Assembly: GCA_020438905.1 (NCBI GenBank)
Contig: JAGQTQ010000022.1
Coordinates: 1 to 43,638 of the forward strand
Reading direction: 5' to 3'
Source: Mycobacterium sp.
GTDB taxonomy: Bacteria > Actinomycetota > Actinomycetes > Mycobacteriales > Mycobacteriaceae
DNA length: 43,638 nucleotides
Each line of letters opens with the position of its first letter. Within the stretch, counting starts at the first letter, position 1. Below are positions 16,265 to 26,146 of this stretch, in pieces. The position numbers and the translations under genes are program-made. Under the pieces are notes generated by a model that did no database searches, was not told the origin of the DNA, and saw nothing but the letters and a program-made list of their open reading frames with translations.

Positions 16265-17755
16265 TCAGCGCCGCTTCTTCCGGTCCCGGGGCGGAGGAAC
16301 GTTGGCCACCACCGGGAAGTCCCCGGTGTGGCCGATACGGTCCTGGGCGATCTCCAGAACCCGCTCGCGGACCAGGAACCAGCCGCCGATGAGCGCGGGA
16401 ATGATGACTGCCAGACTGCCGACCGTCCAGGTGCCGATCGGGTAGTCGAAGGCCATCAGCACCAGGACGCTGACCAGGAACACCAGGGTCAAGTATCCGG
16501 TGTAGGGCGAACCCCACATCCGGAACGACGGACGCTGCATCATGCCCCGCTGCGACCAGCGGTACAGCTGGATCTGGCAGATGATGATGGTGGCCCACGA
16601 CGCCAGGATGCCCAGCGAGGCGACGTTGAGAACGATTTCGAAGGCCCGGTCGGGCACGACGCCGTTGAGCAGGACGCCGATCAGCCCGATGGAGGCGGTC
16701 AGCAGGATCCCGCCGTAGGGGACGCCTTTCGCCGACATCCTGCTGGTGAACTTCGGCGCGCTGCCGCTCATCGCCATGGAGCGCAGAATCCGGCCGGTCG
16801 AATACAGCCCGGCGTTGAGGCTGGAGAACGCCGCGGTCAGGACCACAAGGTTCATCATCGTGCCGCCGCCGCTGATCCCGACCTTGTCGAAGAACGTCAC
16901 GAACGGGCTCTCGTCGGGCGAGTAGGCGGTGTACGGGAGCAGCAGGGCCAGCAGGAACAGCGAGCCGACGTAGAACAATGCGATACGGGCTATGACCGAG
17001 TTGATGGCCCGGGGCATCACCTTTTCCGGTTCCTCGGTCTCGCCGGCCGCCGTGCCGACCAGTTCGACTGCGGCATAGGCGAAGACGACCCCGGCGGTGA
17101 CGACCACCAGTGGCAGCATGCCCACCGGGAAGAATCCGCCGTTGTCGGAGACGACCTTGAAACCGGTGGGATGTCCGTCGATCTCGTAACGGCCGGCCAG
17201 GAATATCGTCCCGGCGACCAGGAAGGCGAGCAGCGCGACCACCTTCACCAGGGCGGCCCAGAATTCGAACTCTCCGAAGACCGACACCGAGACGAGGTTG
17301 ACGCCGAGCACCACCGCCAGCGCGGCCAGGGCGATGACCCACTGGGGGATGCCGTCGAAGGCTCCCCAGAACCGGAAGTAGGTGGCGATCGCGGTCGAGT
17401 CGACGATGGTCGTCATCGACCAGTTCAGGAAGTACATCCACCCGGCCACATATGCGGCCTTCTCGCCGAGGAACTCCCGCGCGTAGGAGACGAAGGAGCC
17501 CGACGACGGCCGGTGCAGGACGAGCTCGCCCATCGCACGCAGAATCAGGAACACGAAGATGCCGCAGAACCCGTAGACCAGGAACAGCCCCGGGCCGGCG
17601 CTGGCCAGCCGGCCGCCCGCCCCGAGGAACAGTCCGGTCCCGATGGCGCCGCCGATGGCGATCATCTGCAGCTGTCGCGGTTTGAGGCTCTTGTGGTAGC
17701 CGGCGTCCTCCCGGGTGAGGGCGGAAGGTTCGGCCGGGCCGGAGACGGTGGTCAT
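16265..17755 (-). CDS. ansP: Amino acid permease, AnsP (L-asparagine) type
   Basis: A 496-residue APC-superfamily transporter with twelve membrane segments. The N-terminal stretch [20 protein letters not shown] holds the unwound first-helix motif GGAIGTGLF that binds the substrate amino group. The later segments ([42 protein letters not shown]) closely match mycobacterial AnsP1/AnsP2 as I remember them. Uptake of L-asparagine or a related neutral amino acid by proton symport is expected. The start overlaps the stop of the upstream small gene (ATGA), so they form an operon. The exact substrate is not proven. Confidence 0.85.
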
Positions 17756-18000
17756 CGCGCCGCACCACCGTTGGTCTGACCGCCGTTGGTCTGATCGATG
17801 GTCGGGTTATGCGGTGGTGCGGGCATGTCGCGGAAGGTGAAGATGAAGCCGAACACCGCGATGGCCGCGGCGATCGCGTAACCGATCGCCGAATACCAGC
17901 CGACCCGCAGGTAGGCGGTGACCGCGACGACGCCCATCGCGAGGAACACCATGGACATCCCGATCAGGGGTGTCTTGGCCTTGAAGTCGATCAGGCGCAC
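17752..18000 (-). CDS. Small membrane protein, operon partner of the permease
   Basis: An 82-residue protein starting at GTG 18000, behind GGGAGATC on the minus strand. It has two hydrophobic segments, [20 protein letters not shown] and [20 protein letters not shown], and a hydrophilic C-terminal tail rich in Asn and Gln ([15 protein letters not shown]). It overlaps the permease start by four bases, so both are translated from one message. I do not recognise the family. It may be an accessory or regulator of the permease, but this rests only on the coupling. Confidence 0.72.
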
Positions 18001-18159
18001 TATTTGGATCTCCCACCGGGTAGTCGAGGTCAGGGTCGAAGAAGTCAGGAAAGTAAACAACGATCGACGCAACGATGTCGGGCTAAGTGTCGAATCATTA
18101 GCATGCCCGTAACAACTCGCCGCGGTGCCGGACGGATCCTTGTGGTGGGATAAGGCGCT

Positions 18160-21100
18160 GTGGGAATCAAAGTGGCGCTGGAGCATCGCACCAGTTACAC
18201 CTTCGACCGTCTTGTCGAGGTGCATCCTCATGTGGTGCGGCTCAGACCGGCCCCGCACAGCCGAACGCCGATCGAGGCGTACTCGATGGACGTGGAACCG
18301 GCCGACCACTTCGTCAACTGGCAGCAGGACGCCTTCGGCAACTTCCTGGCTCGCCTGGTGTTCCCCAACCCCACCCGCTCCCTGACGATCACCGTCGGCT
18401 TGATCGCCGACCTGAAGGTGGTCAACCCGTTCGACTTCTTCATCGAGGACTTCGCCGAGACCTTCCCGTTCGGCTACCCCAAGGGTCTGCGTGAGGATCT
18501 CGCCGTCTATCTGCGGCCGGTGGACGAGGGGGAGGAGGGCTCCGGGCCCGGCGAACTCCTGCGGTCCTGGGTGCGCGATCACCCGATCACCCCGGGAATC
18601 CGCACCATCGACTTCCTGGTGGAACTGAATCAGGCCGTCAACGCCGCAGTGGGCTACAGCGTGCGGATGGAACCGGGCGTGCAGACCCCGGACCACACGT
18701 TGGGGACCCGGATCGGATCCTGCCGGGACTCGGCCTGGCTGCTCGTGTCGATTCTGCGCGAATTGGGTCTGGCCGCCCGGTTCGTGTCCGGATACCTGGT
18801 TCAGCTGACCTCAGATGTGGAAGCTCTCGACGGCCCGTCCGGGCCGGCCGCGGATTTCACCGACCTGCATGCCTGGACCGAGGTTTACATCCCCGGGGCG
18901 GGCTGGATCGGCCTGGACCCGACATCGGGTCTGTTCGCCGGCGAAGGTCACATCCCGCTGGCCGCCACCCCGCATCCGTCCTCGGCGGCGCCGATCACCG
19001 GCGCCACCGGGTTCGCCGAGACCACCTTCGAGTTCTCCAACACGGTGACCCGCATCCACGAGGACCCTCGGGTCACCCTCCCCTACACCGAGCAGGGGTG
19101 GGCGGCCATCACCGCGCTGGGCGAGAAGGTCGACGAGCGACTGTCCGCCGGAGACGTCCGGCTGACGATGGGTGGGGAACCCACCTTCGTCTCGATCGAC
19201 AACCAGGTTGACCCGGAGTGGACGACCGATGCCGACGGACCGCACAAGAGGGAGCGCGCCGCGGCGCTCACGGCGCTGCTGAAATCGGCCTGGGCGCCGA
19301 CCGGCCTGGTGCAGTACAGCCAGGGCAAGTGGTATCCCGGAGAGCCGCTGCCACGCTGGCAGATCGGCTTGCACTGGCGCCGCGACGGCGAACCGCTGTG
19401 GAAGGACGCCGCCTTGCTCGCCGATCCCTGGGACGGCGGTGCCCGGCAGCTTCCACCCGCCGTGGCCGGGGACCTGTTGTCCGCCGTGGCCGCGGGGCTG
19501 GGGCTTCCCGCGAGCCAGGTTCGGCCGGCCTACGAGGATCCGCTGGTACGGCTGGAGAAGTCGGTACGGCGACCCGCGGGCGCCGCGGTGGAACCCGATG
19601 ACGACCTGGAAACCGACACCGGGGCGGGGAGGGCCGCGCTTCTCGCCCGTCTCGACGAGACGATCACCGAGTCGGCCGCCTGGGTGTTGCCGTTGCACCG
19701 TCGCGACGACGACTCCGGATGGGCCAGCGCGGACTGGCGGCTGCGGCGGGGCCGGATCGTTCTGCTCGAAGGTGATTCACCGGCCGGACTCCGGCTGCCC
19801 CTGGACTCGATCAGCTGGCGGCCCCCGCGCCCGACGTTCCAGGCCGATCCGCTGACGGCCGACGACGACCTTCCCGTCGGCGCCGAGACCGCAACCGCGG
19901 TGCTGGAGGACGCCGAGACCGCGCCCACCACGGCGCTGGTCGCCGAGGTCCGCGCTGGCGTGCTCTACGTGTTCATGTCGCCCACCGACGCTCTCGAGCA
20001 CTTCGTCGACCTGATCGCGCGGGTCGAGTCGGCCGCGGCGGCGGTGGGCGCGGCGGTGGTGATCGAGGGATACGGGCCGCCGCCGGACGGGCGGCTGCAG
20101 TCGATGTCGATCACCCCGGACCCGGGCGTCATCGAGGTCAATCTCGCCCCCTCAGCCAGCTTCGCCGAACAGAGCGAACAGTTGCAGACCCTCTACGAGC
20201 AGGCCCGTCTGGCGCGGTTGTCCACCGAGAGCTTCGATCTCGACGGAACCCATGGCGGGACCGGGGGAGGCAACCACATCACCCTCGGCGGAATCACCCC
20301 GGCGGAGTCGCCGCTGCTCCGCCGACCCGACCTGCTGGTCTCGATGCTGACCTACTGGCAGCGCCACCCGTCCCTGTCGTACCTTTTCGCAGGACGGTTC
20401 GTCGGCACCACCTCACAGGCTCCGCGGGTCGACGAGGGGCGCTCCGAGGCCCTCTACGAACTGGAGATCGCCTTCGCCGAAATCGCCCGGCTGAGCCGGT
20501 CCGGTGACCCCGATCCCTGGTTGACCGACCGGGCGCTGCGACACCTGCTGACCGATATCACCGGCAACACCCACCGCGCGGAGTTCTGCATCGACAAGCT
20601 CTACAGCCCCGACAGCTCCCGGGGCAGGCTCGGACTGCTGGAGTTGCGGGGTTTCGAGATGCCGCCGCACTACCAGATGGCCATGGTCCAGTCCCTGCTC
20701 GTGCGCGCTCTGGTGGCCTGGTTCTGGGACGAGCCGCTGCGTGCCCCGCTGATCCGCCATGGTTTGAATCTGCATGGCCGTTTCTTATTGCCGCACTTCG
20801 TGATTCACGACATCGCGGCCGTCGCCGCCGATCTGCGCGCCCGCGGCATCGGTTTCGACACCAGCTGGCTCGACCCGTTCACCGAGTTCCGGTTCCCGCG
20901 GGTCGGCACGGCGGTGTTCGACAACGTCGAGATCGAGCTGCGCGGTGCGATCGAGCCCTGGTACACCCTCGGCGAGGAATCGACTGCCGGTGGGGCCGCG
21001 CGCTACGTCGACTCCTCGGTGGAGCGCCTGCAGGTGCGCACGATCGGCGCCGATCGTCAGCGCCACATGGTCACCTGCAACGGTCACCCCATTCCGATGC

Positions 21101-21471
21101 TGGCCACCGACAACCCCGATGTGCAGGTGGCCGGCGTTCGGTACCGGGCCTGGCAACCACCAAGCGCGTTGCACCCCACCCTCACGGTGGACACCCCGCT
21201 GCGCTTCGAACTGGTCGACACCGGCACCGGCATGTCGCGCGGCGGCTGCACCTACCACGTCTCCCATCCGGGCGGGCGGGCCTACGACGCCCCGCCGGTC
21301 AACGCGGTGGAGGCCGAGTCGCGGCGCGGCAGGCGGTTCGAGGCGCACGGATTCACCCCCGGTCGCATCGACATCACGACGCTGCGGGAGCGCCAGGCCC
21401 GCCAATCCACCGATGTCGGTGCCCCAGGAATCCTCGATCTGCGCCGGGTGCGTACCGTTCTGGAAAGCTGA
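18160..21471 (+). CDS. Transglutaminase + DUF2126 (putative amidoligase) protein
   Basis: A 1103-residue cytoplasmic protein with two enzymatic halves. Residues 1-280 are a transglutaminase-like domain, with a Bact_transglu_N-type start (VALEHRTSYTFDRLVEVHPH) and triad Cys188 (GSCRDSAW), His237 (LHAWTEV) and Asp253 (GLDPTSG). From about residue 320 the DUF2126 domain follows, recognisable by VRLTMGGEPTFVSID, QYSQGKWYPGEPLPRW, GGTGGGNHITLGG and FAGRFVGTTSQAPRVDEG; Pfam labels it a putative amidoligase. The architecture matches M. tuberculosis Rv2566. It starts at GTG 18160 with GGATAAGG upstream. It opens a four-gene same-strand set. Coupling a ligase to a protease-like domain suggests synthesis and trimming of an isopeptide or peptide. 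Confidence 0.9.
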   Translation: MGIKVALEHRTSYTFDRLVEVHPHVVRLRPAPHSRTPIEAYSMDVEPADHFVNWQQDAFGNFLARLVFPNPTRSLTITVGLIADLKVVNPFDFFIEDFAETFPFGYPKGLREDLAVYLRPVDEGEEGSGPGELLRSWVRDHPITPGIRTIDFLVELNQAVNAAVGYSVRMEPGVQTPDHTLGTRIGSCRDSAWLLVSILRELGLAARFVSGYLVQLTSDVEALDGPSGPAADFTDLHAWTEVYIPGAGWIGLDPTSGLFAGEGHIPLAATPHPSSAAPITGATGFAETTFEFSNTVTRIHEDPRVTLPYTEQGWAAITALGEKVDERLSAGDVRLTMGGEPTFVSIDNQVDPEWTTDADGPHKRERAAALTALLKSAWAPTGLVQYSQGKWYPGEPLPRWQIGLHWRRDGEPLWKDAALLADPWDGGARQLPPAVAGDLLSAVAAGLGLPASQVRPAYEDPLVRLEKSVRRPAGAAVEPDDDLETDTGAGRAALLARLDETITESAAWVLPLHRRDDDSGWASADWRLRRGRIVLLEGDSPAGLRLPLDSISWRPPRPTFQADPLTADDDLPVGAETATAVLEDAETAPTTALVAEVRAGVLYVFMSPTDALEHFVDLIARVESAAAAVGAAVVIEGYGPPPDGRLQSMSITPDPGVIEVNLAPSASFAEQSEQLQTLYEQARLARLSTESFDLDGTHGGTGGGNHITLGGITPAESPLLRRPDLLVSMLTYWQRHPSLSYLFAGRFVGTTSQAPRVDEGRSEALYELEIAFAEIARLSRSGDPDPWLTDRALRHLLTDITGNTHRAEFCIDKLYSPDSSRGRLGLLELRGFEMPPHYQMAMVQSLLVRALVAWFWDEPLRAPLIRHGLNLHGRFLLPHFVIHDIAAVAADLRARGIGFDTSWLDPFTEFRFPRVGTAVFDNVEIELRGAIEPWYTLGEESTAGGAARYVDSSVERLQVRTIGADRQRHMVTCNGHPIPMLATDNPDVQVAGVRYRAWQPPSALHPTLTVDTPLRFELVDTGTGMSRGGCTYHVSHPGGRAYDAPPVNAVEAESRRGRRFEAHGFTPGRIDITTLRERQARQSTDVGAPGILDLRRVRTVLES

Positions 21472-21484
21472 CAGCCCCCCGGAG

Positions 21485-21503
21485 GCCGCCGGACGCCGGC
21501 GGC
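21485..21503 (+). terminator. Hairpin between the first and second genes of the transglutaminase set
   Basis: GCCGCCGG (21485-21492), loop ACG, CCGGCGGC (21496-21503): a perfect eight-base stem in the gap of about 106 bases. No T-run follows, so it is not a classical intrinsic terminator. It might reduce read-through, stabilise message ends or attenuate. Confidence 0.4.
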
Positions 21504-21577
21504 GGGGAGCATGACGTGCCGGGTAAGGGCCCCGGGATCGGGCCCCAGACCGCGGGTGCAGACAGGAGGTGGATTCG

Positions 21578-24208
21578 GTGGCGTTGTCGATCACCGGAAC
21601 CGGCCTCAGCGGCCCTGGGTACGACACGCGGCACCTTGTCGATGGCTACCGAGCCCGCCCTTCGGTGTTCGGGTGCACCGGTTACGACGAGTTCATCGAC
21701 ACCGGCGGGAACGTCCGGCCGGCATGGCGGGAGCTTGCCGAGCTGCTCGACGAGCGTGGCGAGGCCGGGCTGGACCGCCTGCGCGAACTGCTGCGGGATC
21801 TGGTCGACAACAACGGGATCACCTATATCGAGATCGACCGGCACGGCGAGGCGGTCACCGACGGTCACGGTATGGCGATGCCGGGTCCTTGGCACCTCGA
21901 CGGCATCCCACTGCTGCTGGCGAACTCGGACTGGCAGGCCCTGGAAGCGGGGATGGTCCAACGCTCCCGGTTGCTCGATGCTGTGCTGCGCGATCTCTAC
22001 GGTGAGCGCCGCTCGCTCACCAGTGGCGTTCTGCCCCCGCGTCTGCTGTTCGGTCACCCCGGCTATCTCCGCGCCGTTCGCGGTATCCATAACCCGGGCC
22101 GCCATCAGCTGTTCATGCTGGCCTGCGACGTCAGCCGCGGCGCCGACGGGGATTTCCTGGTCAACGCCGACTGGACGCAGGCGCCCTCCGGAGCCGGGTA
22201 CGCGCTGGCCGACCGTCGGCTGGTGGCCCGCTCGAACCCGGACATCTACGAACGGATCCGGCCCAGATCGGCCTCACCGTTCGCCCAAGCGCTGCGGTTG
22301 GCCCTCATCGAGGCGGCCCCGGAAGCGGCCGAGGATCCGGTCGTCGTGGTGCTCAGCCCGGGAATCCACTCCGAAACCGCCTTCGACCAGGCCTACTTGG
22401 CAAGCGTGCTGGGTTTCCCGCTACTGGAGAGCGACGACCTGGTGGTTCAGGACGGAAAGCTCTGGATGCGTTCGCTCGGCACGCTCAAGCAGGTGGACGT
22501 CGTGTTCCGAAGGGTCGACGCCGAGTACGCCGATCCGCTCGACCTGCGACCGGACTCCCGCCTCGGGGTGGTGGGGCTGGTCGAGACACAACGCCGCGGC
22601 GCCGTCAGCGTGGTCAACGGGCTGGGCAGCGGGATTCTGGAGAGCCCCGGGCTGCACCGGTTCCTGCCGGAGCTCTGCGAGTTGCTCCTCGGCGAGTCGC
22701 CGTTGCTGGCCAGCCCGCAGTCCTACTGGGCCGGAATGGACGCCGAGCGCTCGCATCTGCTGTCGCGTCTGGAGTCACTGCTGATCAAGTCGACGGTGGG
22801 CGCGCAGACCATCGTGGGTCCGGCCCTCTCGGCAGCGGAGCGGGCCGAGTTGGCCGCCCGTATCGAGGCGGCTCCGTGGCAGTGGGTCGGACAGGAACTC
22901 CCGCAGTTCTCCACCGCCCCGACCGGACACTTCCCGGGCGGAATGTCGGCGGCCGGCGTCGGCCTGCGGCTGTTCACGGTGGCGCAGCGCAGCGGTTACA
23001 CCCCGATGGTCGGCGGGCTGGGCTACGTGCTCAGCCCGGGGCCCGGCGCGTTCAAGCTCAACCAGGTTGCGGCCAAGGACATCTGGATCCGGCCGCCCGC
23101 GCGGGCCGCCGCGGCCGTGACGGTGCCGTCGGTGAAGCTGCCCAGCGGCACCCCTTCGATCAGCTCACCGCGGGTTCTGGCCGATCTGTTCTGGATCGGG
23201 CGCTACGCCGAACGCAGCGAGGCGTTCGCCAGGTTGCTCATCGTCGCCCGCGAGCGGTACCACGAATTCCGCAACCGCCGCGATGTCGAGGGCAGCGAAT
23301 GCCTGCCGGTGCTGCTCAACGCGCTGGACAGACTCGCCGACGCCGACGTGACCGCGGGAAACACAGACGACGAAGCGGTCCGGTCGGCGCCGTACACGCT
23401 CTGGTCACTGACCGCCGATCGGACACGTGCCGGGTCGCTGGCCCAGTCGGTGGAGGGCCTGGGCCTGGCGGCCCGCGCCGTGCGGGACCAGATGTCCAAC
23501 GACACCTGGATGGTGCTGGGCGTGGTGGAACGGACGCTGGCCCGGCTGGCCGAGTCCGGCCCCGACGACGGGCCCGACGCCGCGCTGTACGACGACACCG
23601 CGCTGGCCACCGCCCAGCAGCGCACACTGGGCGCAATGCTGGCGTTGTCCGGGATGGCGGCCGAGTCGATGGTCCAGGACGCCGGGTGGACCATGATGGA
23701 CATCGGAAAGCGGATTGAGCGCGCTCTGGCGCTGTGCGCGCTGCTGCGGGTCACGATCACCGCCCGGCGCGGCCCGGTGGTCGAACAGAACATCACCGAC
23801 TCGGTGCTCGTGGTGTGCGAGTCCTCGGTGATCTATCGTCGCCGCAACCTCGGGCAGACCAGTGTCGCGGCAGTCGCGAGACTGCTGCTCTTCGACGGCC
23901 GCAACCCGAGATCGTTGGCTTTCCAGCTCGACCGGCTTCGCGCGGACCTGCGCTCGCTGCCCGGGGCTTCCGGCGCAACGCGCCCGGAACGGCTGGTCGA
24001 GGAGGTCAGGGCACGACTGCGCCGGATGGACCCCGAAGATCTCGAGCAGGTGGATGCCCGCGGCCGACGGCTCCAACTCGACGGGTTGCTGTCCGAGGCG
24101 TACAACGCGCTGCGCGACCTGTCCGACCTCATCACCCGGATTCAACTCTCGCTGCCCGGCGGTATGCAACCGCTGTGGGGTCCCGACCAACGGCGCGCGA
24201 TGCCATGA
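21578..24208 (+). CDS. Circularly permuted ATP-grasp + alpha-E fusion protein
   Basis: An 876-residue protein. Roughly residues 60-500 are the circularly permuted ATP-grasp domain (RLLDAVLRDLYGERRSL, PPRLLFGHPGYLRAVRG, VNGLGSGILESPGLHRFLP), expected to use ATP to join a carboxylate to an amine. Residues about 525-850 are an alpha-E domain (SSPRVLADLFWIGRYAERSE, all alpha-helical). The same order is found in M. tuberculosis Rv2567, of similar length. GTG at 21578 is chosen because AGGAGG ends at 21569, eight bases upstream; the in-frame GTG at 21569 overlaps that site. The stop overlaps the next ATG by four bases. The substrate is unknown; genome-context studies have proposed ATP-grasp/alpha-E/transglutaminase sets as peptide-tailoring systems. 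Confidence 0.9.
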   Translation: MALSITGTGLSGPGYDTRHLVDGYRARPSVFGCTGYDEFIDTGGNVRPAWRELAELLDERGEAGLDRLRELLRDLVDNNGITYIEIDRHGEAVTDGHGMAMPGPWHLDGIPLLLANSDWQALEAGMVQRSRLLDAVLRDLYGERRSLTSGVLPPRLLFGHPGYLRAVRGIHNPGRHQLFMLACDVSRGADGDFLVNADWTQAPSGAGYALADRRLVARSNPDIYERIRPRSASPFAQALRLALIEAAPEAAEDPVVVVLSPGIHSETAFDQAYLASVLGFPLLESDDLVVQDGKLWMRSLGTLKQVDVVFRRVDAEYADPLDLRPDSRLGVVGLVETQRRGAVSVVNGLGSGILESPGLHRFLPELCELLLGESPLLASPQSYWAGMDAERSHLLSRLESLLIKSTVGAQTIVGPALSAAERAELAARIEAAPWQWVGQELPQFSTAPTGHFPGGMSAAGVGLRLFTVAQRSGYTPMVGGLGYVLSPGPGAFKLNQVAAKDIWIRPPARAAAAVTVPSVKLPSGTPSISSPRVLADLFWIGRYAERSEAFARLLIVARERYHEFRNRRDVEGSECLPVLLNALDRLADADVTAGNTDDEAVRSAPYTLWSLTADRTRAGSLAQSVEGLGLAARAVRDQMSNDTWMVLGVVERTLARLAESGPDDGPDAALYDDTALATAQQRTLGAMLALSGMAAESMVQDAGWTMMDIGKRIERALALCALLRVTITARRGPVVEQNITDSVLVVCESSVIYRRRNLGQTSVAAVARLLLFDGRNPRSLAFQLDRLRADLRSLPGASGATRPERLVEEVRARLRRMDPEDLEQVDARGRRLQLDGLLSEAYNALRDLSDLITRIQLSLPGGMQPLWGPDQRRAMP

Positions 24209-25104
24209 CCAATCGGCGCTACCGCATCAGCCACCACACCCAGTACCGTTACTCCGATGTGGTCACCAACTCCTACGGTCGCGGGCATCTGACTCCCCGC
24301 GACACCGCCGGGCAACGGTGCCTGTCCTTCGAGCTGGACATCGACCCCGAACCCACCGACCGCTCCACCAGTCTGGACGGTTACGGCAATCTCAGTACCT
24401 ACTTCCAGGTCACCCACCGGCACCGGGCACTTTCGGTGCTGGGCAGGTCGGTGGTCGAGGTGGCTCCGCCGCCGGCGGGGCTGTACTCCTCAGGTGCGGC
24501 GATCGAGCCTTGGGAGTCGGCCCGCCCGGAAGGTTCCGGTGGCGTGCTGGCCACGGATTTCTGCCTCGACTTCAGCCCGCCCGAAATCACCGCGGACGTC
24601 GTTGAGTATGCCGCTACGAGTTTCATGCCCGGCCGCCCGCTGATCGAGGCGGTGCGGGATCTGAACGCCAGGATCTTCGCCGACTTCACCTACCGGTCGG
24701 GTTCGACCACGGTCTCGACCCAGGTCAGTCAGGTGCTGGAGGCCCGAGAGGGCGTGTGCCAGGATTTCGCCAGGCTGGCGATCGCCTGTCTGCGGGCCAA
24801 CGGCCTGGCGGCCAGCTACGTGTCCGGATACCTGGCGACCGATCCGCCACCGGGCAAGGAGCGGGTGTTCGGTATCGACGCCACCCATGCCTGGGCGGCT
24901 GTGTGGACTCCCGGCAACGGCTGGCTCGGCCTGGACCCGACCAACGACCAACTGGTCGACGAGCGCTACATCACCGTGGGGTGGGGACGTGACTACTCCG
25001 ACCTGCCCCCGCTGCGCGGGATCATCTACACCGACTCCGAGTCCAGCGTGATCGACGTGTCGGTGGACGTGGAGCCACTCGACGGTGATTTTCCCGTTGC
25101 GTGA
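24205..25104 (+). CDS. Transglutaminase-like protease-fold protein
   Basis: A 299-residue protein. The N-terminal part (YRISHHTQYRYSDVVTNSYG) is the Bact_transglu_N domain, followed by the core with Cys185 (REGVCQDFAR), His228 (ATHAWAAVW) and Asp244 (LGLDPTND), all three triad residues present. No signal peptide. The ATG at 24205 overlaps the previous stop (ATGA), and its 3' end overlaps the next gene, so the three are one translation-coupled unit. It resembles M. tuberculosis Rv2569c. It could hydrolyse or form amide bonds; in this context it probably acts on the product of the neighbouring ATP-grasp or amidoligase enzymes. Confidence 0.9.
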   Translation: MTNRRYRISHHTQYRYSDVVTNSYGRGHLTPRDTAGQRCLSFELDIDPEPTDRSTSLDGYGNLSTYFQVTHRHRALSVLGRSVVEVAPPPAGLYSSGAAIEPWESARPEGSGGVLATDFCLDFSPPEITADVVEYAATSFMPGRPLIEAVRDLNARIFADFTYRSGSTTVSTQVSQVLEAREGVCQDFARLAIACLRANGLAASYVSGYLATDPPPGKERVFGIDATHAWAAVWTPGNGWLGLDPTNDQLVDERYITVGWGRDYSDLPPLRGIIYTDSESSVIDVSVDVEPLDGDFPVA

Positions 25105-26146
25105 CTTCACCTGCCCGAACTGCGGCCGGCACCTGGCCTTCGAGAGTTCGGTCTGCCCGTCCTGCGACAGCCGGCTGGGGTTCTCCCTCGAAGCGATGGC
25201 CTTCCTCGTCTTCGCCGCGGGGGGAGGTGCGGGCCAGGACGGTACCGTCGACTCCCGGACATACCAGATCTGCGCGAATCACTCTCTAGCCGAGTGCAAC
25301 TGGCTGGTGGAGGTCGAGCCGGTCCACCGGCTGTGCAGTTCCTGCTCGCTTACCCGGACGCGGCCGTACGACGGCGACACCGCAGCGCTGGCCGCCTTCG
25401 TCGAGGCCGAGAAGGCCAAGCGCCGCCTGATCGCCGAACTTCACGAGTTGCGGCTGCCGGTCATCGGGCGCGACCGGGATCCCGCCCACGGGCTGGCCTT
25501 CGATCTTCTTTCCAGTGCCGGCGAGCCGGTGATCACCGGCCATGACAGCGGTGTGATCACCCTGGACCTGGCCGAGGGGGACGATGTGCGGCGCGAGCAG
25601 CTGAGGGTCGAGTTGGACGAGCCGTACCGCACCGTGCTGGGACATTTCCGCCACGAGATCGGCCACTATTACTTTTACCGCCTGGTGCAGCCCGCACCGG
25701 AGCGCGCCCAAGCGTTCGAGCGGCTGTTCGGCGACCCGGGGGCCGACTACCAGGGGGCGATCGACCGCCATTACAGCCAGGGTCCACCACCGGGATGGCA
25801 GCAGGACTTCGTGTCCTCCTATGCCACCATGCACCCCGCCGAGGACTGGGCCGAGACCTTCGCGCACTACCTGCACATCCGCAGTACGCTGGACACCGCG
25901 GCCTCTTACGGTCTGGCTCCGGCCAACGCCACCTACGAGCGGCGGATCCTGGGCCCCAGCGCCTTCGACACCCTGATCGAGGTGTGGCTGCCGCTGTCCT
26001 GGTCGATGAACATGGTCAACCGCTCGATGGGCAAGCCGGATCTCTACCCGTTCACCCTGCCCGGACCTGTCCTGGAGAAGATGCGCTTCGTGCACGCCGT
26101 GGTGGACGACACGGGCGCGGGCCGAACGGCGTCAGTTCCCCGTTGA
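25085..26146 (+). CDS. Zinc-ribbon putative metallopeptidase
   Basis: A 353-residue protein. Two Cys pairs form a zinc ribbon at the N-terminus (Cys10, 13, 24, 27: CPNC then CPSC) and a further Cys set (Cys63, 71, 84, 87: SLAECNWLVEV, LCSSC). Residues 190-194 are HEIGH, the HExxH zinc-protease motif, and Glu257 in DWAETFAHYLHI is a good third ligand. This composition matches the putative zinc-binding metallopeptidase family seen in M. tuberculosis Rv2568c. I list GTG 25085, which overlaps the previous gene by 20 bases; TTG 25097 (MRDFTCPNCG) is an alternative that is closer to typical homologues. It is convergent with the next gene. Likely role: cleavage within the same pathway. Confidence 0.85.
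   Translation: MIFPLRDFTCPNCGRHLAFESSVCPSCDSRLGFSLEAMAFLVFAAGGGAGQDGTVDSRTYQICANHSLAECNWLVEVEPVHRLCSSCSLTRTRPYDGDTAALAAFVEAEKAKRRLIAELHELRLPVIGRDRDPAHGLAFDLLSSAGEPVITGHDSGVITLDLAEGDDVRREQLRVELDEPYRTVLGHFRHEIGHYYFYRLVQPAPERAQAFERLFGDPGADYQGAIDRHYSQGPPPGWQQDFVSSYATMHPAEDWAETFAHYLHIRSTLDTAASYGLAPANATYERRILGPSAFDTLIEVWLPLSWSMNMVNRSMGKPDLYPFTLPGPVLEKMRFVHAVVDDTGAGRTASVPR

What the first reader, a model, noticed from the sequence alone, without database searches (positions are those of the whole stretch)
18160..26146. Four-gene amidoligase / ATP-grasp / transglutaminase / metallopeptidase unit: candidate peptide-synthesis and processing system
Seen: four same-strand genes, the last three overlapping (4 and 20 bases), with two predicted amide-forming enzymes (DUF2126; circularly permuted ATP-grasp with alpha-E), two transglutaminase-fold domains with intact Cys-His-Asp triads, and an HEIGH zinc protein. 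Known: M. tuberculosis Rv2566-Rv2569c has the same set, and genome-context work has proposed such sets as peptide tailoring systems, but I know of no proven substrate or product. Inferred: the enzymes build and later cut a peptide or isopeptide, perhaps linked to the cell envelope or to a storage metabolite. In M. tuberculosis the last two genes carry the c suffix (opposite strand), while here all four face one way.
Basis: partly seen in the sequence, partly recalled or inferred. Interest (0 to 1): 0.8.

Follow-up and report, generated by a model that had tools for sequence, protein, structure and literature searches.

The report
Amide-bond make-and-break gene set
Four neighbouring mycobacterial genes encode enzymes that most likely join and cut amide bonds in small peptides; the set belongs to a gene system already predicted in the literature, whose product is still unknown and whose relatives in some other bacteria are switched on when nitrogen runs short.

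Summary
In detail: four same-strand genes (18160-26146) encode TG+DUF2126 (g1), CP-ATP-grasp+Alpha-E (g2), TG (g3) and zinc-ribbon+Peptidase_Mx (g4). Two details change. The conserved g4 start gives an 8-base, not 20-base, overlap with g3. The strand difference from M. tuberculosis fits one derived inversion of the g3-g4 pair; co-directional order looks ancestral. The unit is layered: in 118 genomes g3 occurs only with g2 (98 of 98) and, broken copies set aside, g4 only with g2 (93 of 93), while g1 is an add-on, absent from 26 genomes that keep g2 and g4. TG triads and the HExxH are kept. A promoter-like element, TGTGRTGRGAT, stands 6-9 bases before g1 in 74 of 79 loci. The kind is known (Iyer et al. 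2008; 2009 recalled). Added here: a nitrogen-control thread in proteobacterial relatives, namely sigma-54-like sites at operon starts and ntrC-glnL beside one cluster, agreeing with a published NtrC regulon (PMC5491218). No such signal was found in mycobacteria. Product and substrate remain unknown; structure prediction could not be run.

The parts
18141..18151 (+). conserved promoter-like element TGTGGTGGGAT, 8 bases before the g1 start
   Evidence: TGTGRTGRGAT 6-9 bases before g1 in 74 of 79 loci, with a TGCR box 13 bases upstream of it in most of 58 non-redundant loci; 1 of 2 exact copies in the 3.69-Mb assembly. The window's own TGCR box is poor (2 mismatches), and the two-box pattern at 2 mismatches finds 10 places in the assembly against 3 for the reversed control
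18160..21471 (+). g1: N-terminal transglutaminase fold (PF08379+PF01841) + DUF2126 putative amidoligase (PF09899), 1103 aa, GTG start
   Evidence: C188-H237-D253 and E340, E659, H706, E828, R830 in 89 of 89 rows
21578..24208 (+). g2: circularly permuted ATP-grasp (PF14403/PF04174) + Alpha-E (PF04168); ORF opens at 21569, likelier GTG start 21578
   Evidence: closest solved chain 3n6x (E 1e-59)
24205..25104 (+). g3: transglutaminase-fold protein, 299 aa, 4-base overlap with g2
   Evidence: C185 and H228 in 84 of 84, D244 in 83 of 84 rows
25097..26146 (+). g4: zinc ribbon + Peptidase_Mx metallopeptidase (HEIGH); ORF opens at 25085, conserved start corresponds to TTG 25097
   Evidence: eight Cys and HExxH among the conserved positions
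16265..17755 (-). divergent amino-acid permease (PF00324); a neighbour only in the closest relatives
   Evidence: found beside g1 only in L002, L003 and L066 of the 80 fetched relatives

Best explanation
A cytosolic, ATP-driven amide synthesis-and-hydrolysis module. Shown: the domains, the kept TG triads, HExxH and other invariant residues, and the confinement of g1, g3 and g4 to genomes with g2. Inferred: g2 activates a carboxylate as an acyl phosphate and couples it to an amine, with Alpha-E as an intrinsic partner domain. g3 (and the TG half of g1), through a cysteine thioester, hydrolyses or transfers that amide or isopeptide. g4, whose start overlaps the g3 end, trims or degrades the peptide released. 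g1, where kept, adds a second ligase (DUF2126) fused to its own amidase-type domain, which widens the substrate range. The product is probably a short gamma-glutamyl or isopeptide-linked conjugate, made and taken back as nitrogen supply changes; the nitrogen part has evidence only in proteobacterial relatives and is a hypothesis for mycobacteria.
For: Domains and conserved residues. g3 orthologues only with g2 (98 of 98; 98 of 99 g2 genomes have g3), g4 only with g2 (93 of 93) and g1 only with g2 (69 of 69) after broken copies and other paralogues were set aside. An 8-base g3/g4 overlap in 56 of 66 loci. The families cluster again in other Actinomycetota (L141-L143), Burkholderiales, Azospirillum, Enterobacter, Acidithiobacillus and Granulicella. 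Nearest solved structure of the g2 ligase: 3n6x, 'putative glutathionylspermidine synthase'; phosphate release from ATP by a relative's ATP-grasp protein (PMC6376114, passages). Nitrogen control of relatives: I35_5080-83, table values -8.2, -9.4, -9.4, -6.0 in an ntrC mutant and named as common sigma-54/NtrC targets (PMC5491218, passages); PP_2685 and PP_2688 up 4.4 and 4.0 log2 on nitrate versus ammonium (PMC8050072, passages); 7 of 10 sigma-54-like sites in 15 loci at the operon start, 0.23 expected by length; ntrC-glnL beside a cluster of a proteasome-fold protein, DUF2126, ATP-grasp and Alpha-E; marine networks link these domains, DUF2126 not among them, to urea metabolism (PMC3597751, passages).
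Against: No substrate or product is known. In mycobacteria only the start-proximal boxes, a weak GCG at -34 to -32 (up to 0.7 bit) and nothing above 0.42 bit farther up to -81 were seen, so the nitrogen link is not shown there. The P. putida and marine data concern the core genes, not DUF2126. The sigma-54 test was prompted by two of its own loci, six of the seven sites are from Burkholderiales, and 8 of 15 loci have none at one mismatch. No convincing solved relative of DUF2126 itself; its fold was not modelled. Yersinia Anbu-operon proteins showed no specific interaction and Anbu no peptidase activity (PMC6376114); PMC5666114 reports operon proteins as non-essential and unchanged in expression under various conditions, though Anbu rises in nitrogen-limited P. 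putida. A published study reports Rv2569c (g3 type) as a cell-wall-associated protease blocked by serine- but not cysteine-protease inhibitors (PMC11081392, passages).
Confidence: 0.5

Rival explanations
1. Protein tagging: the ligases attach a non-ribosomal peptide to proteins, and TG/Peptidase_Mx (Anbu elsewhere) remove it or degrade the tagged protein, as proposed for the system by Iyer et al. 2009 (recalled).
For: GS-like ligases include the Pup ligase (PMC2588565, passage); the Acidithiobacillus cluster pairs DUF2126, ATP-grasp and Alpha-E with a proteasome-fold protein, presumably Anbu (PF00227).
Against: No small Pup-like partner seen: of the 25 largest flank ORF clusters shown, those shared with Nocardia or Friedmanniella lie within the span of the four genes (ORFs of 70 aa or more only), and PMC2588565 also reports none for this family. 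No modified protein is known.
Confidence: 0.28
2. Cell-envelope peptide modification or cross-linking (transglutaminase-type).
For: Rv2569c was reported as cell-wall-associated (PMC11081392, passages); an M15-type peptidase (class by eye) shares the promoter-like element in 3 of 41 genomes.
Against: The openings of g1-g4 show no obvious signal sequence (by eye); ATP-dependent ligases and a double zinc-ribbon protein fit the cytosol; the M15 link is 3 genomes only.
Confidence: 0.1
3. Unrelated genes that merely lie together, each with its own job (for example g3 as a secreted serine protease).
For: g1 is dispensable to the rest (26 of 118 genomes); the inversion separates g3-g4 from g1-g2; inhibitor data on Rv2569c.
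Against: g3 is confined to genomes with g2 (98 of 98), the families re-cluster in distant phyla in different orders, and the nucleophile position is Cys in 84 of 84 g3 rows.
Confidence: 0.08

Closest known systems
Predicted amidoligase peptide-synthesis/tagging system with permuted ATP-grasp, GS-like ligase, Alpha-E, transglutaminase and NTN peptidase (Iyer et al. 2009, recalled, not held; cited in PMC5666114 and PMC6376114)
   Same: CP-ATP-grasp, Alpha-E, transglutaminase and DUF2126 all present
   Different: The peptidase in this cluster is Peptidase_Mx with zinc ribbons, not Anbu; ATP-grasp and Alpha-E are fused
M. tuberculosis Rv2566-Rv2569c
   Same: Same four families (Rv2566 fusion described in PMC2588565, passage; the other assignments recalled; that genome was not examined here)
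Burkholderia cenocepacia I35_5080-83 (BCAM1233-1236), an NtrC/sigma-54-dependent cluster
   Same: DUF404/407, DUF403, TG and large TG protein (PMC5491218, passages); in another B. cenocepacia strain ATP-grasp, Alpha-E, an unassigned stretch of about 1.2 kb and DUF2126 follow in that order (L178), and in B. multivorans a TG lies in that stretch (L135). That I35_5083 is the DUF2126 protein is inferred
   Different: ATP-grasp and Alpha-E are separate genes and a fusion copy plus TG follow; sigma-54-like site instead of the mycobacterial element
Glutathionylspermidine synthetase/amidase (features recalled)
   Same: Works alike: a ligase of related fold paired with a papain-like amidase (3n6x bears the name)
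   Different: No GSP_synth or CHAP domain among the Pfam hits

Membership tests
Amidoligase system of Iyer et al. 2009 | circularly permuted ATP-grasp ligase | tested here: met
   PF14403 1e-123 and PF04174 3e-118
Amidoligase system of Iyer et al. 2009 | Alpha-E helical domain | tested here: met
   PF04168 2e-62; E548-R549 in 85 of 85 rows with letters
Amidoligase system of Iyer et al. 2009 | GS-like ligase (DUF2126) | tested here: met
   PF09899, 1148 bits; the GS-like fold and its permutation were not tested, structure machine busy
Amidoligase system of Iyer et al. 2009 | transglutaminase-fold protein | tested here: met
   g1 and g3
Amidoligase system of Iyer et al. 2009 | NTN-hydrolase peptidase (Anbu) in the cluster | tested here: not met
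   none of the four proteins matches PF00227; the peptidase is PF15887. An Anbu elsewhere in the genome was not searched for. The Anbu-type subform is therefore not claimed, only the wider system
Amidoligase system of Iyer et al. 2009 | makes a peptide or peptide tag | not testable with these tools
   needs biochemistry
Pupylation (PafA/Dop/Pup) | Pup_ligase domain and a Pup-like small gene in the cluster | tested here: not met
   no such Pfam hit in the four proteins; no small ORF of 70 aa or more outside the four genes among the clusters shared with Nocardia or Friedmanniella (25 largest shown); shorter ORFs, Pup's own size range (recalled), were not tested
Glutathionylspermidine synthetase/amidase | CHAP amidase and GSP_synth domains | tested here: not met
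   absent; only the relative 3n6x by sequence
Serine protease (published for Rv2569c) | serine nucleophile | tested here: not met
   Cys at the expected nucleophile position in 84 of 84 g3 rows; sequence only, not activity

The most novel reading that the evidence does not exclude
A modular, widespread nitrogen-stress amide-conjugation system: an inseparable core (permuted ATP-grasp+Alpha-E+transglutaminase) combined with an exchangeable peptidase (Anbu in some bacteria, Peptidase_Mx in others) and an optional second ligase (DUF2126), storing or releasing amide nitrogen through an undescribed conjugate, in mycobacteria too.
Probability: 0.25. Interest if true: 0.75.

Novelty: new member of a known kind. 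Interest (0 to 1): 0.45.

Why it matters
The set is a ligase system of mycobacteria whose substrate has stayed unknown since it was predicted. The layered co-occurrence tells which genes to test first (g2+g3), and the nitrogen-control evidence in relatives gives a growth condition (ammonium limitation) in which a product or phenotype may appear, so the old question becomes testable by metabolomics in harmless laboratory strains.

Tried and rejected
Structure prediction of g1 (alignment A1) was asked for and each time answered 'machine busy'; A2 was never submitted; no fold search was made. Searches of solved structures found nothing convincing for DUF2126 beyond the TG half.

Idea that TGTGRTGGGAT marks a large regulon: rejected in this form. 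In 41 genomes the element followed by ATG/GTG 5-10 bases on occurs at 39 places (42 rows, overlaps merged), 21 of them at this gene set (18 intact g1, 1 g1 remnant, 1 g2, 1 g3); 29 of 41 genomes have any. The other 18 are scattered, apart from 3 M15-type peptidases and 3 ABC-ATPase-like genes (hand count, by-eye naming; four g1 places assigned by coordinates). The element before inverted g3 (4 of 15 loci scanned, within 1 mismatch: L058, L139, L153, L167) lies in one subclade, so it may be a single event. After g1 loss it stands before g2 in 5 of 27 loci scanned (3 exact, 2 with one mismatch; L174 and L175 could not be scanned at the start), partly a trivial result of deletion. Which sigma factor reads it is open.

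Overlapping coding in the element, and a small tag ORF in the g1-g2 gap, were considered and dropped (variable spacing and stops). A conserved mycobacterial nitrogen-regulator site: none seen to -81; farther upstream not tested, and no GlnR model was used. Literature: (two searches left unused); 'DUF2126' had no occurrence in the rows listed (20 of 238, 25 of 25).

Rows dropped or judged by hand: for the genome lists were transcribed. G002, G282 and G308 were counted as lacking g1 (remnant or fragments), G305, G026, G268 and G308 as lacking g4 (second Mx type or fragments); g2 and g3 orthologues were cut at 60% identity among the rows listed. On the raw lists there are exceptions to 'only with g2': G282 has g1 fragments, G268 Mx fragments and G305 the second Mx type without a g2 orthologue. 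The 13 changes of g1 on the tree leave out L156, L167 and L175, do not by themselves tell gain from loss, and may be inflated by L170 and L171 from incomplete assemblies. One tree method (FastTree) was used.
Full report
What is there. The window is part of contig C98 of a 3.69-Mb, 85%-complete assembly; its closest relatives among those fetched are two Mycobacterium/Mycolicibacterium metagenome assemblies, 96% and 95% identical over g1 (L002, L003). Four + strand genes lie at 18160-26146: g1 with a bacterial transglutaminase N region, a transglutaminase core and DUF2126; g2 with a circularly permuted ATP-grasp and Alpha-E; g3, a second transglutaminase-fold protein; g4 with a zinc ribbon and Peptidase_Mx. 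No NCBIfam model matches any of them at E 0.001.

Gene boundaries. g2/g3 overlap by 4 bases. The g2 start is probably GTG 21578 behind AGGAGG (inference).

Conserved residues. In alignments that include more distant relatives, g1 C188/H237/D253 and E340/E659/H706/E828/R830 are kept in 89 of 89 rows; g3 C185/H228 in 84 of 84 and D244 in 83 of 84; g4 H190/E191/H194 in 73 of 73 rows with letters. For g2 no catalytic set was established: R132, R314 and D504 hold in 90 of 90 rows and K503 in 88, while Q204, E269 and E339 vary in the more distant, paralogue-like rows (82, 82 and 80 of 90).

Order and strand. Of 80 relatives fetched, nine have the g3-g4 pair inverted behind g2 (L052, L056-L062, L076); those with species names are slow growers (recalled). 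Nocardia (L067, L068, L075) and Friedmanniella (L080) are co-directional. On a FastTree tree of 107 g2 proteins, with further genus genomes, the inversion needs one change, and the 17 inverted rows fall in one supported group of 18 (local support 96); the other row, L140, has its g3 on another contig. Thus the co-directional order is probably ancestral and the M. tuberculosis order derived; that genome itself was not examined.

A layered unit. In 118 genomes of the genus, g1 is found in 72, Peptidase_Mx in 97, and g2 orthologues (60% identity or more) in 99. After setting aside remnants and other paralogues, as told under Tried and rejected: g1+g2+g4 in 67, g2+g4 without g1 in 26, g1+g2 without g4 in 2, g2 without either in 4, none in 19. 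g3 orthologues occur in 98 genomes, all with g2; only G005, an incomplete assembly, has g2 without g3. g1 presence needs 13 changes on the g2 tree; repeated loss is likelier than gain, since the outlying Friedmanniella row has g1 and remnants exist (G002). So the hub is g2 with g3, g4 is a near-constant partner, and DUF2126 is an accessory. Fisher tests are, but related genomes are not independent. DUF2126 is rare in the phylum sample: 8 of 198 genomes, 5 of them in this genus.

Promoter-like element. TGTGRTGRGAT stands 6-9 bases before the g1 start in 74 of 79 loci (one of the 79 being the window's own contig); a TGCR box lies 13 bases farther up in most of 58 non-redundant loci, with only weak conservation at -34 to -32 above it. 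Nocardia has a different form and Friedmanniella none by eye. Exact copies of TGTGRTGGGAT occur twice in the window's assembly; the two-box pattern does not single out the locus there, because the window's upper box is poor. The short distance to the start suggests a leaderless or nearly leaderless transcript (inference). The element also precedes g2 in some species that lost g1, and inverted g3 in one subclade; both findings are weaker than they look, as told above.

Elsewhere. The Burkholderia loci examined (L135, L178, L183, L184) carry separate ATP-grasp and Alpha-E genes, then DUF2126, an ATP-grasp/Alpha-E fusion and TG. The four Caballeronia loci examined (L134, L185, L186, L188) carry DUF2126 with a divergent Peptidase_Mx; the fusion is only a fragment in L186 (annotation). 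Azospirillum (L137, L187) and Shinella (L182) show DUF2126, fusion and TG; Halomonas (L181) has all four families but most of them in pieces. An Enterobacter plasmid has ATP-grasp, Alpha-E, DUF2126, fusion and TG; an Acidobacteriota plasmid DUF2126, fusion and TG. An Acidithiobacillus caldus plasmid has a proteasome-fold protein, presumably Anbu (PF00227, 31 bits), DUF2126 in two pieces, ATP-grasp and Alpha-E, and near them ntrC and glnL, an APC permease, an aliphatic amidase and transposases.

Nitrogen. In B. cenocepacia the cluster I35_5080-83 is named among common NtrC and sigma-54 targets (PMC5491218, passages); identity of I35_5083 with DUF2126 is inferred from its description and from the order in L178 and L135. 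In P. putida the Anbu-operon genes PP_2685 and PP_2688 rise 4.4 and 4.0 log2 on nitrate versus ammonium (PMC8050072, passages). PMC6376114 states that Anbu is highly expressed in nitrogen starvation (passages). Marine metagenome networks tie the core domains to urea metabolism (PMC3597751, passages). My own test: of 10 sigma-54-like sites (at most one mismatch, GG and GC kept, same strand) in 15 loci, 318 kb, 7 lie within -400 to +80 of the first gene (L134, L135, L177, L178, L184, L186, L188); 0.23 expected by length, single-base shuffles of those stretches give 0.06 on average and at most 2. Limits: I had seen L134 and L135 before setting the test (without them 5 of 7); first-gene positions were set by me, partly from profile matches; six of the seven are Burkholderiales and nearly alike within Burkholderia and within Caballeronia, so independent events are perhaps three. 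The other 8 loci (L137, L179-L183, L185, L187) have no site at one mismatch there; L181, L183 and L185 have one or two at two mismatches, and L179 has one 68 bases before its ATP-grasp gene. In mycobacteria I have no such evidence.

Mechanism and conflict with print. The best reading is a make-and-break cycle on an amide or isopeptide bond. The closest solved ligase is 3n6x. The published claim that Rv2569c is a serine protease rests, in the passages read, on inhibitors; the conserved Cys-His-Asp of this family speaks for a cysteine enzyme. I cannot decide it from sequence.

Verdict. Real, mostly as described, already known as a kind; the layered structure, the direction of the rearrangement and the nitrogen thread are the additions. 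No paper that names DUF2126 and ties it to nitrogen control was found in searches, which cover open-licence papers only; PMC5491218 lists what is probably such a protein without that name.

Noticed in passing
G000:C101:2287-5734 (L145): The same genome holds a second, split set: ATP-grasp, Alpha-E and TG as separate genes (ATP-grasp 34% and TG 36% identical to g2 and g3).
   Followed up: partly
G000:C41:27163-27184 (L082, L108), L106, L110: An M15-type (D-Ala-D-Ala carboxypeptidase-like, by eye) secreted protein has its ATG 7-8 bases after the same TGTGRTGGGAT element in 3 of 41 genomes.
   Followed up: partly
L087, L092, L097: Related ABC-ATPase-like genes (by eye) in three genomes also start just after TGTGRTGGGAT.
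   Followed up: no
G308 (3.3 Mb, one contig): In this reduced genome g2 and g3 matches lie in open frames at distant places while g1 and g4 matches are in pieces, those of g4 with stops; it fits a minimal g2+g3 core.
   Followed up: no
window 16265-18000, - strand: An amino-acid permease and a small protein without Pfam match lie divergently before g1; beside g1 only in L002, L003 and L066.
   Followed up: partly
L177 (Enterobacter roggenkampii plasmid): The set lies near arsC and between IS elements on an IncFII plasmid typed non-mobilizable.
   Followed up: no
L179:9001-13631 (Acidithiobacillus caldus plasmid): The DUF2126 protein matches in two pieces about 1.4 kb apart and is annotated only in its second part.
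   Followed up: no
L066:9962-9992: The promoter-like element is present twice, 20 bases apart.
   Followed up: no
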